Positions 22,483 through 59,697 of a stretch of 64,000 nucleotides of DNA are shown piece after piece. This DNA is from an uncultured Williamsia sp. (GTDB lineage Bacteria > Actinomycetota > Actinomycetes > Mycobacteriales > Mycobacteriaceae). The first letter of the stretch is position 1; each line of letters opens with the position of its first letter. The notes under the pieces are model-generated. The model did no database searches. It saw only the letters and a program-made list of their open reading frames with translations, and was not told the DNA's origin. Location: contig NZ_CANLWM010000002.1 of the NCBI RefSeq assembly GCF_947494875.1, positions 434,001-498,000 of the forward strand, read 5' to 3'. The position numbers and the translations under genes were made by a program.

Positions 22483-25109
22483 TCAGGGCGCGCGGAGGTG
22501 CACCGCGACGACGGCGAGGACGTCGGCGTCGCCCATCTGGAGATGACCGGCGTCGACGTCGACGCGGGTCACGCTGCCGCAGTACGGTTCCCAGCTCGCG
22601 GCGACCGCTGCGGGGTCGGACTTGTCGGCCGTCGCGACCACCACGACGGCGGGCGCCCGGACCCGCCCGGGTCGGTGCCCGGCGGCCACGGCATCGGCGT
22701 CGGCGAAGCTGTCCATGATCGCGGCCACACGGTCGGCCGGCAGCAGCCCGCTGCGCGCGATGTGGTCGCGGACCACCGCGGCGACCTCGTCGGGGGTCGT
22801 CGCCTGCACGTCGTCTCCGAGGTCGAACAGGGTGCGCCACCCGTCGAGCGGGTCCACCGGTGCAGCGTCGGCTGTCCGCACGTCGAGGTCACCGACCCAC
22901 GTGTCGAGCAACCCGAGCACCGCGACCTGCTCCCCCGCCACTTCGAGCTGCTGCGTCATCGCGTGCGCGATGTGCCCACCGAGCGACCATCCGAGCAGGT
23001 GATACGGCCCGTGTGGCTGGACTTCTCGGACCTCGGCGACGTACCGCCGCGCGTACGCATCGATGGACGCCGGTGCCGGCTCACCGGCGACGACCGCCGG
23101 GTCCTGCAGCGCATGGATCGGTCGGTCGGGCAGGAACGGCGCGAGTCCGCCGTACATCCAGGCCAGTCCACCCGCGGGATGGACGCAGAACAGCGGTGGT
23201 CCGCTGCCCTCAGCGCGCAGCGTCAGCAGCACCCGACCCGCGTCCCCACCGCCCGCGACTCGCGCCGCGAGTGCCCGCGGGGTGGGGTCGGAGAAGACCC
23301 ATGGCAACTCCACCACGATCCCCTGACGCCGCAGCTTCGTGACCGCCCGCGCTGCCGACAGCGAGGTGCCGCCGACGTCGAAGAAGGTGTCGGTCGGCGC
23401 GATCGACGGCACGCCCACGACCTCCGCGAACACGGACGCGATCCACCGTTCCGTCTCAACGAGGAGCCCGGCGGCGGGTTCGACGGCGCGATCGTCCGGC
23501 ACCCGAGGTGGCTGCGGTGGCGATGTCGGCGCCGTCGCCGCAGCGGGCCCACCGATCACCTCCACCGCGCCGTCACGGATCCGCGCCCGGTCGCCGGTGC
23601 GGTACATGCGTCCGCCCGGCGGCCCGACGGGGTCGGCGACGAGGCGCGTCGCGGTACTCGCCCCGGGATGCATCGGCGGGACCGCGGCGCCGCGCAGCCA
23701 CAGGTCGCCGACGAGCCCGGTCGGCACCGGTCGCACCATCCGGTCGAGGACGACGGGGGCGTCGCTCGTCACGGTGATGGGCTCGTCGTCGAGCACCGCG
23801 TCGCCCGGCGCGACACCCGCGACGAGCGCGTCGACGACACGCAGGAACACGTCGCGGAACCGTTCGACCGTGCCGGCGTCGTAGATGGCCGCGGCATAGG
23901 TGATCGATCCCCGGAGCCCGTCCGCGGTGTCGGCGACGCCGACGGCGAGGTCGACCTTCGCCGGCTCGGGTCCGAGGTCCACCCCGCGGACCGTCACCCC
24001 GAGATCGCCGAGGACGTCGGCGGCGAACTCGTCCTCCTCCAGCAGGTTCAGGGTGATCTGGTGGATCGGCGGCCGACGGTCGGCACGGTCCGGCGCGAGC
24101 ATCTCGACGAGGAGGTCGAACGGCAGGTCGGCGTGGGAGAACGCGGCGGTGTCGTCGTCGCGGACACGCGCGAGCAGATCGTCGACGGTGTCGTCGGGCC
24201 GCGACGCAGTGCGGAGGACGACGGTGTTGACGAACATCCCGACCATGTCAGCGGTCGCGGGATGGCGTCGCCCGCTGACCGGCGCGCCGATCACCACGTC
24301 GTCGCAGCCGGTGAACGCGGCCACCGTGATCGAGAGCGCGGCGTGCAGTGTCATGAACGTCGTCAGTCCATGTCGGCGGCCGAGGGTGAGGAGTGCGGCG
24401 GAGCGTTCCACACCGAGGTCGAGCTCGACGCGGCCGCCCGTGCTGTCGGCGACGGGCCCTCGCGGACGGTCCGTCGGGATGTCGGTGCGCACGGGCAGGT
24501 CGGCAAGACGCTCACTCCACCATGCCGACTGCTCGCCGAGCACTGACGCGGGGTCGTCGCTATCGCCGAGAACGGCGTGCTCCCACAGGGTGTGGTCGGC
24601 GTGACCGATCTCCAGGGCCGGCAACCGGTCCCCGACGACCCGTCGGCGGTATGCCTCGGCGAGATCGCGGGCGAGGATCCCGGCGGACGCGGCGTCGCCT
24701 GCGATGTGGTGGAGGACGACGACGAGGCGGTGCCGGTTGCCGGATCCGGCCAGGGCGGCCCGAATAGGCATGTCGCGCGTGACGTCGAACCCTATGCTGC
24801 ACAGGCTCATCGCGTCGTCGATGGCTACCGGCTCGCTCCACCAGCCTCCCCCGAGTGCCTCGTCCGTGTCGAGGATTCGCTGGTACGGGACGCCGTCGTC
24901 GTCCGTCGGGAACAGCGTGCGCAGAGCGGTGTGTCGGGCGATGACGTCACCGACGGCGCCATGCATTGCCGTGCGATCGAGAGGCCCGTCGATGTCGAGG
25001 GCGACCGGCATGAGGTAGGTGGTCGACGACGGGTCGAGCTGGTTGAGGAACCAGATCCGTCGCTGCGCCAGACCCAGCGGCACGACCGACTCCGGGTCGC
25101 GGGGACGCA
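22483..25109 (-). other. NRPS module 12: C, A remnant, T, thioesterase
   Basis: C domain with the altered motif HHIAGDA near residue 11664. Only about 80 residues of an A domain remain (DNA about 23545-23790), covering the GDLWLRG and RMYRTGD region but not the ATP-binding loops. Then carrier VGGTSLSA near residue 12109 and a type I thioesterase with GWSLGG near residue 12237 and a DAGHLQMGD histidine motif near the end. The thioesterase should release the peptide by hydrolysis or cyclisation. Confidence 0.87.

Positions 25110-59697: not shown

What the first reader, a model, noticed from the sequence alone, without database searches (positions are those of the whole stretch)
22483..59697. 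Twelve carriers but nine adenylation domains: three modules must be skipped or loaded by others
Modules 5, 8 and 12 have lost A-domain function in three different ways while all their carriers, and the condensation motifs of modules 5 and 8, stay intact. Stepwise loss with retained C and T motifs argues that the C-T units still work. Established precedents are the A-less C-T module of viomycin-type systems and yersiniabactin, where one A domain loads several carriers. Three such modules in one polypeptide looks unusual and could be a distinct loading logic.
Basis: partly seen in the sequence, partly recalled or inferred. Interest (0 to 1): 0.8.

Follow-up and report, generated by a model that had tools for sequence, protein, structure and literature searches.

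The report
Giant peptide synthetase missing three loaders
A giant bacterial peptide-making enzyme has lost three of its twelve amino-acid-loading units over time while keeping the matching assembly and carrier units in working order, so the remaining loaders probably serve more than one station.

Summary
Confirmed. The 12,404-aa ORF at 22483-59697 (-) of a Williamsia genome carries 12 carriers and 9 adenylation (A) domains. A5 is decayed, A8 absent, A12 a ~110-residue remnant. Condensation (C) and carrier (T) motifs are intact.

Orthologues show how this arose. Two Williamsia genomes have an A domain in all 12 modules, and a third in all 9 modules before its contig ends. W. serinedens shares the three losses. 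W. deligens shares the A5 and A12 losses, keeps A8 and has lost A11. Parsimony gives at least four losses.

C and T of modules 5, 8 and 12 are under the same purifying selection as those of complete modules. A5 and A8 are serine-coded in the complete relatives, each beside a retained serine-coded A domain (A4, A9). Searching the genome with A4 found no free-standing serine-class A domain.

Best reading: the A-less C-T modules remain active and remaining A domains load several carriers, most firmly A4 loading T4 and T5. This is inferred, not shown. The supplier of T12 is unknown, that of T8 ambiguous. Cross-module loading is known (capreomycin, mannopeptimycin, SidD/SidC); several A-less modules in one bacterial polypeptide, with complete and parallel states preserved in relatives, is a new variant.

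The parts
22483..59697 (-). 12,404-aa NRPS: A1-T1-C2-A2-T2-C3-A3-T3-E-C4-A4-T4-C5-(decayed A5)-T5-C6-A6-T6-C7-A7-T7-E-C8-T8-C9-A9-T9-C10-A10-T10-C11-A11-T11-C12-(A12 remnant)-T12-TE
   Evidence: ORF; Pfam; home-made HMMs
47347..48393 (-). A4, intact, code DVWHVSLIDK (serine class); proposed loader of T4 and T5
46690..46896 (-). T4 carrier
45337..46587 (-). C5, HHIASDG intact
   Evidence: dN/dS 0.30
44308..45336 (-). decayed A5: P-loop, code helix, YGPTE, GRxDxQ and C-terminal subdomain gone; best profile matches are the serine positions; shared with two other species
   Evidence: dN/dS 0.36
44080..44283 (-). T5 carrier, LGGTSL intact, no A domain of its own
34975..36213 (-). C8 (follows E7, groups with C4), HHLVLDG intact
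   Evidence: dN/dS 0.17
34876..34974 (-). C8-T8 linker, about 33 residues, where A8 is wholly absent
34669..34875 (-). T8 carrier, LGGNSL intact, no A domain of its own
38446..39495 (-). A7, intact, code DVPHFSLVEK; one of the candidate loaders of T8
32140..33165 (-). A9, intact, code DVWHVSLVDK (serine class); candidate loader of T8 and T9
25792..26853 (-). A11, intact here, code DVPHSTLVEK; absent in W. deligens
23788..25035 (-). C12, HHIAGDA (a form also seen in a relative that keeps A12)
   Evidence: dN/dS 0.21
23470..23787 (-). A12 remnant around A6-A7 (GDLWLRG ... MYRTGD)
   Evidence: dN/dS 0.50
23251..23454 (-). T12 carrier, VGGTSL intact, no A domain of its own
22531..23199 (-). thioesterase (TE)
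59694..63998 (-). upstream NRPS of the same line (cut by the window edge); whole frame is C-A(DVWHVSLVDK)-T-C-A(DVFVMALITK)-T-C

Best explanation
The NRPS descends from a fully equipped 12-module line and has lost A domains one at a time (A5 and A12 first, later A8 in this lineage, A11 in W. deligens). The C-T pairs left behind still extend the chain, because their carriers are charged by A domains that remain in the same assembly line. A5 and A8 are serine-coded in the complete relatives and each has a serine-coded A domain next door, A4 upstream of module 5 and A9 downstream of module 8, so A4 most likely charges T4 and T5 with serine. For T8 the supplier is either serine A9 (or A4) or an A domain of the A7/A11 type. 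For T12 it is unknown; the A domain in the upstream protein whose pocket looks most like the lost A12 is one candidate. Shown here: domain content, distribution of the losses among relatives, selection on C and T, codes, and that a search with A4 finds no free-standing serine-class A domain in the genome. Inferred: the order of the losses, that T5, T8 and T12 are charged, and by which A domain.
For: Losses: G003 and G004 have A domains in 12 of 12 modules and G006 in 9 of 9 modules complete before its contig ends; G000 and G005 lack A5, A8, A12; G001 lacks A5, A11, A12 and keeps A8. Selection, G000 against G005: C of modules 5, 8, 12 dN/dS 0.25 [0.21-0.30] against 0.28 [0.25-0.31] for other C; T 0.27 [0.16-0.39] against 0.26 [0.20-0.35]; intact A cores 0.22; decayed A5 0.36; A12 remnant 0.50. 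Codes: A4, A5, A8, A9 of G003, G004, G006 all read DVWHFSLVDK, the serine code of enterobactin synthetase (PMC3795760, passage). The decayed A5 of all 3 species scores best with the profiles of positions A4, A5, A8, A9. Search of the own genome with A4 at E 1e-15: 31 matches, 30 in multimodular NRPS frames, one in a Pls/PosA-family A-T protein with the non-serine code DAESIGTVVK. The terminal module lacks an A domain also in 3 genomes of another genus, C and T motifs kept. Precedents: SidC A3 charges T4 and T5 one and two modules away, helped by their C domains (section); SidD charges a carrier beside a truncated A domain (section); CmnA-A1 charges CmnI; mannopeptimycin A-T-C-T (passage).
Against: No loading data. 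T5 has not become more like T4, nor T8 more like T9; T8 and T9 are 38% identical here and 65-71% in the complete relatives. That the lost A domains had a same-class twin is not significant by my own arithmetic (no call): if 9 of 14 had a twin, three random losses would all hit twins with probability about 0.23. A8 in W. deligens is not serine-coded (DVPHWSTVEK), so the residue lost at module 8 in this lineage is uncertain. A12 has no retained A domain with the same code; the nearest, DVFVMALITK, shares six of nine letters, and the tree joins them with support 0.50. Purifying selection would also fit a carrier used only as a way-station. In the other genus C12 is slightly closer to that of the complete relatives (52-53%) than to that of the A12-less Williamsia (48-51%), so a single shared A12 loss is not supported.
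Confidence: 0.62

Rival explanations
1. Module skipping: T5, T8 and T12 are never charged, the chain passes over them, and the product is shorter than in the complete relatives.
For: The A domains are plainly dead or gone, and losing residues is a simple way to change a product. The supplier of T12 is not identified.
Against: C5, C8, C12 and T5, T8, T12 keep catalytic motifs and the same dN/dS as complete modules; in module 8 the A domain is gone without trace while C and T stayed.
Confidence: 0.2
2. Loading in trans by a dedicated free-standing A or A-T protein, as in WS9326A, ramoplanin or albicidin.
For: Known solution for A-less or dead-A modules (PMC7539972 passages; PMC8949500 passages). 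The genome has one A-T protein on another contig (C4:95272-100575).
Against: That protein belongs to the Pls/PosA family, which has its own terminal domain, and its code DAESIGTVVK is not the serine class. All PF00501 matches between C2:434001 and C2:548418 lie in the three NRPS frames. Not excluded: the other 37 PF00501 matches outside multimodular NRPS frames, which the A4 search did not reach at E 1e-15, were not classified one by one.
Confidence: 0.08
3. Loading by A domains of other assembly lines in the same cell, such as the serine-coded A domains of the neighbouring 11,371-aa NRPS frame.
For: That frame has two DVWHFSLVDK A domains and begins about 12 kb beyond the upstream gene.
Against: Not needed for serine, since A4, A9 and the upstream protein have that class in the same line. 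I looked for no evidence of such cross-talk.
Confidence: 0.05
4. Decay of a dying gene cluster that makes nothing.
For: Pooled dN/dS of C and T is somewhat higher in the group with losses (C of other modules 0.28 against 0.18 in the G003-G004 pair), and W. deligens has a frame change inside T2.
Against: A 12,404-codon frame without an internal stop, purifying selection on C, T and intact A domains, and the same architecture kept in W. serinedens.
Confidence: 0.05

Closest known systems
Capreomycin/viomycin CmnI/VioI (A-less C-T module charged by CmnA-A1 / proposed VioA-A2)
   Same: A C-T module without A in an actinobacterial line, charged by the A domain of another module (PMC12400406, part 1 of 3 of the text read)
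   Different: One A-less module on its own protein and loaded in trans; here three inside one polypeptide, one with a decayed A domain still in place
Fungal SidD / SidC and ferrichrome synthetases
   Same: Degenerate or missing A domains, intermodular loading by one A domain, and differential A-domain loss among relatives (PMC10192304 outline and two sections; PMC2644324 passages)
   Different: Fungal siderophore enzymes with fewer modules; the A-less carriers of SidC take one repeated monomer. Here bacterial, 12 modules in the protein, at least two lost specificities
Mannopeptimycin NRPS, C-A-T-E-C-A-T-C-T-E
   Same: Same A-T-C-T layout in which one A domain serves both following carriers (PMC8949500 passage), like A4-T4-C5-T5
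   Different: Single A-less module in the layout quoted there; no A remnant mentioned in the passage
Thalassospiramide line of Tistrella
   Same: Truncated, presumably dead A domain; other A domains of the pathway proposed to load its carrier (PMC5577590 passages)
   Different: First module only; no gene inactivation had linked cluster and product according to that review
WS9326A, ramoplanin, enduracidin, albicidin
   Same: A-less or dead-A modules inside large NRPS (PMC7539972 passages; PMC8949500 passages)
   Different: Rescued by free-standing A or A-T proteins; none of the serine class was found here

Membership tests
NRPS C-T module charged by the A domain of another module of the same line | C domain with HHxxxD and carrier with phosphopantetheine serine | tested here: met
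   All three A-less modules
NRPS C-T module charged by the A domain of another module of the same line | No functional A domain in the module | tested here: met
NRPS C-T module charged by the A domain of another module of the same line | Another A domain of the line with the required specificity | tested here: inconclusive
   Met for A5 (serine class; A4 and A9 remain); ambiguous for A8; only a similar code for A12
NRPS C-T module charged by the A domain of another module of the same line | C and T maintained by selection after the A domain is gone | tested here: met
   dN/dS of C and T equal to complete modules
NRPS C-T module charged by the A domain of another module of the same line | Carrier shown to be aminoacylated by that A domain | not testable with these tools
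   Needs protein mass spectrometry
Dead-A module rescued by a free-standing A or A-T protein | Free-standing A or A-T gene of fitting specificity in or near the cluster | tested here: not met
   No PF00501 match from C2:434001 to C2:548418 outside the three NRPS frames; the only A4-like match outside multimodular NRPS in the genome is a Pls/PosA-family protein with a non-serine code
Skipped NRPS module | Product lacks the residue of the module | not testable with these tools
   Product unknown
Skipped NRPS module | Relaxed selection or loss of motif in the unused C or T (an expectation of mine, not a strict definition) | tested here: not met
   Motifs kept and no relaxation relative to complete modules

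The most novel reading that the evidence does not exclude
This lineage is moving from one loader per station to a shared pool: a few A domains charge many carriers in a 14-module bacterial line, both downstream (A4 to T5) and upstream (A9 or A11 to T8), and even across proteins (the upstream A domain to T12). Which A domain is dispensable differs by species: A8 is gone here and A11 in W. deligens.
Probability: 0.25. Interest if true: 0.78.

Novelty: new variant of a known kind. Interest (0 to 1): 0.55.

Why it matters
Bacterial NRPS products are usually predicted by counting A domains. Here that rule would drop three residues. Close relatives preserve the complete form, the shared losses and two different later losses in orthologous enzymes. 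That is a natural experiment on how A domains become dispensable and which partners can replace them, and it gives matched constructs for testing how far an A domain can reach, upstream as well as downstream. It could also guide engineering of shorter synthetases.

Tried and rejected
Free-standing loader: searched the own genome with PF00501 (68 matches) and with A4 (31 matches). The one A4-like match outside multimodular NRPS frames was fetched and turned out to be a Pls/PosA-family A-T protein with a non-serine code. The other 37 PF00501 matches outside those frames were not classified.

Convergence of orphan carriers on their supposed partners: none. Redundancy of the lost A domains as a statistical argument: not significant by hand arithmetic, so not used as proof. 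AlphaFold2 model of the decayed A5 from three sequences: mean pLDDT 32.3, uninformative; no fold search was run. Orthologues in G002 and G007: the C12-T12-TE query gave only paralogue-like matches (best 41% and 38% identity), so these two of eight Williamsia genomes are counted as not showing the gene; the search was not exhaustive. Of 27 loci, two are the Williamsia orthologues, four (Rhodococcus oryzae, R. spelaei, Nocardia speluncae, Gordonia liuliyuniae) were scored and taken as paralogues, and 21 were not examined. Substrates of codes such as DVPHFSLVEK could not be assigned; a text search for six code strings returned one paper. Literature on Williamsia NRPS: 19 papers hold both terms, 12 listed, none on this system by title. 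Reports of several A-less modules in one bacterial polypeptide: none seen in the titles and abstracts listed; the lists were capped and the library holds only open-licence papers.

A8 was first taken as simply serine in the ancestor. The A-domain trees put W. deligens A8 outside the serine positions (with A3/A7 at support 0.89, at the base of the wider clade), so the lost specificity is left open.

Full report
OBSERVATION. The ORF at 22483-59697 (-) is uninterrupted for 12,404 codons. It starts with a GTG that overlaps the upstream stop as GTGA, so it is probably coupled to the upstream NRPS gene that runs off the window. Pfam on 12 pieces, home-made HMMs and motif scans agree on 12 carriers and 9 intact A domains. 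There are also 11 C domains, two E domains (after T3 and T7) and one TE. Module 5 keeps about 340 residues between C5 and T5 in which the P-loop, the code-bearing helix, YGPTE, GRxDxQ and the C-terminal subdomain are missing or unrecognisable. Module 8 has only a linker of about 33 residues. Module 12 has 111 residues around A6-A7. In this protein all 12 carriers keep the GGxS serine and all C and E domains keep HHxxxD.

WHERE IT IS. The genome belongs to Williamsia: the nearest named relatives are W. serinedens and W. deligens. The upstream protein of the same line is C-A(DVWHVSLVDK)-T-C-A(DVFVMALITK)-T-C. Its last C domain precedes A1 of the big protein, so the line has 14 modules. Its first C domain scores low (109) against the local C profile; I take that as a lipid-starter type, which is an inference. 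A second line (11,371-aa frame) and an MbtH gene lie further upstream.

ORTHOLOGUES GIVE THE HISTORY. Eight Williamsia genomes were searched, and six hold this NRPS. G003 and G004 have an A domain in 12 of 12 modules (A2 of G004 has altered core motifs). G006 has one in all 9 modules complete before its contig ends. G000 (window) and G005 lack A5, A8 and A12. G001 lacks A5, A11 and A12 but keeps A8. G002 and G007 gave no convincing orthologue. The E domains lie after modules 3 and 7 in all six, and the TE is terminal in the five whose 3' end is in hand. Parsimony gives A5 and A12 lost before the three species split, A8 lost in the G000/G005 lineage and A11 lost in W. deligens. The decayed A5 carries corresponding gaps in all three species, so it is not fresh decay. 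A caution: between G000 and G005 synonymous divergence falls to pS about 0.13-0.29 from residue about 5,315 to about 11,560 and is mostly 0.36-0.48 outside (0.19-0.33 at the very start). Modules 6-11, including the A8 deletion, may therefore have been exchanged between lineages.

A SIMILAR END IN ANOTHER GENUS. A search of 251 genomes of the family with C12-T12-TE at E 1e-100 matched 7: three Williamsia and four of one other genus. The complete Williamsia relatives did not pass this threshold, so it misses homologues. Three of the four (G118, G129, G201) end in A-T-C-A-T-C-(182 to 220 residues)-T-TE with no A domain in the last module. C12 there is 48-51% identical to that of the three Williamsia with losses and 52-53% to that of the two complete ones, and the motifs are kept. 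G151 of that genus keeps the terminal A domain (DVFMTGAIAK). Whether the loss is shared or repeated is unresolved; by eye the remnants begin at about the same place, before A6. Across 171 modules tallied in the fragments lacked A.

SELECTION. Nei-Gojobori dN/dS, G000 against G005, bootstrap intervals: C of modules 5, 8, 12, 0.25 [0.21-0.30]; other C, 0.28 [0.25-0.31]; T of modules 5, 8, 12, 0.27 [0.16-0.39]; other T, 0.26 [0.20-0.35]; intact A cores, 0.22; decayed A5, 0.36 [0.28-0.47]; A12 remnant, 0.50 [0.32-0.84]. Single carriers have wide intervals (T8 0.35 [0.12-0.91]). The C8-T8 linker is 1.24 over only 32 codons. The G000-G001 and G001-G005 pairs give the same picture for C and T (0.31 against 0.33-0.34; 0.27 against 0.29), though G001 still has A8. 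In the complete pair G003-G004 the pooled C and T values are lower (0.16-0.21), so constraint on C and T is somewhat weaker throughout the group with losses, but not specifically in the A-less modules. Unused C-T units should have drifted. These have not.

WHAT THE LOST A DOMAINS LOADED. Codes were read from an alignment anchored on A4. In G003, G004 and G006, A4, A5, A8 and A9 all read DVWHFSLVDK, the serine code of enterobactin synthetase (PMC3795760, passage seen): two adjacent serine pairs. In G000, A4 is DVWHVSLIDK and A9 DVWHVSLVDK, close to that code; their serine assignment is inferred. The decayed A5 of all three species scores best against the profiles of positions A4, A5, A8 and A9 (the A8 profile includes the non-serine A8 of W. 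deligens). A5 was therefore most likely a serine domain beside a retained serine domain. A8 is less clear, because in W. deligens it reads DVPHWSTVEK and groups with A3/A7 (support 0.89). T8 may thus be served by a serine A domain or by an A7/A11-type domain. A8 gone with A11 kept here, and A11 gone with A8 kept in W. deligens, is suggestive but a single case. A12 reads DVFMGAWITK in the complete relatives; the most similar retained code is DVFVMALITK in the upstream protein, but tree support is only 0.50.

MECHANISM. Most likely the A-less modules still add residues, and their carriers are charged by A domains already in the line. A4 charging T4 and T5 is the firmest part (A-T-C-T with the same residue twice). 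It matches mannopeptimycin as described in PMC8949500 (passage). It also matches SidD, where a carrier beside a truncated A domain is charged by A1 (PMC10192304 introduction), and SidC, where A3 reaches carriers one and two modules downstream and their C domains help. The last point offers a reason why C5, C8 and C12 are kept. A dedicated free-standing loader, the solution in WS9326A, ramoplanin and albicidin, was looked for. Of 31 A4-like matches in the genome 30 lie in multimodular NRPS frames. The last is a Pls/PosA-family A-T protein (TIGR02353, 750.5 bits against a cut-off of 423.1) with code DAESIGTVVK. The remaining 37 PF00501 matches outside those frames were not classified. Skipping remains possible, above all for module 12, whose supplier is unknown.

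AGAINST. No carrier was shown to be charged and the product is unknown. Orphan carriers show no convergence on their supposed partners. The redundancy of the lost A domains is not statistically strong. The structure prediction of the decayed A5 failed.

KNOWN OR NEW. A-less modules and cross-module loading are known. Differential A-domain loss among relatives has been described for fungal ferrichrome synthetases (PMC2644324, passages). New here is the combination: three A-less modules of at least two lost specificities in one bacterial polypeptide, with the complete form and parallel losses in close relatives. No report of that was seen in the capped listings, which cover open-licence papers only.

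Noticed in passing
window 25000-43800 (modules 6-11): Between G000 and G005 (W. serinedens) synonymous divergence is about half as high in modules 6-11 as in modules 2-5 and 12, which looks like a recombination tract of about 19 kb that includes the A8 deletion.
   Followed up: partly
window 20742-22070 (-): A free-standing condensation-domain protein with intact HHIAFDG lies directly downstream of the TE; G005 has a C domain in the frame at the same place. Possible trans-acting acylation or release enzyme.
   Followed up: no
L065 / G004:C1, A2 of the orthologous NRPS: The A2 domain of G004 has an altered A3 core motif (TSGSAGRPT) and no lysine at A10; it may be another A domain starting to decay, this time one with an uncommon code.
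   Followed up: no
L062 / G001:C1 near 2671778-2673330: The W. deligens NRPS is read in two frames that meet inside T2: a real frame change or an assembly error.
   Followed up: no
window 3-2674 and 3539-17818 (+): Siderophore-type ABC transport genes and several glycosyltransferase and sugar-transferase genes lie beyond the NRPS end; whether they belong to the pathway is unknown.
   Followed up: no
G000:C2:514306-548418 (loci L056-L058): A second giant NRPS frame of 11,371 aa with an A domain in all 9 modules scored, and an MbtH gene at C2:549376.
   Followed up: partly
G151:C1:939612-989105 (L092-L094): A 16,498-aa open frame with 13 modules scored, each with an A domain, in another genus, related to this NRPS at its end (T12-TE 57% identical).
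   Followed up: partly
L109:3272-8575 (-), G000:C4:95272-100575: A Pls/PosA-family A-T synthetase (TIGR02353) with code DAESIGTVVK, of the kind that makes amino-acid polymers (function recalled, not tested).
   Followed up: partly
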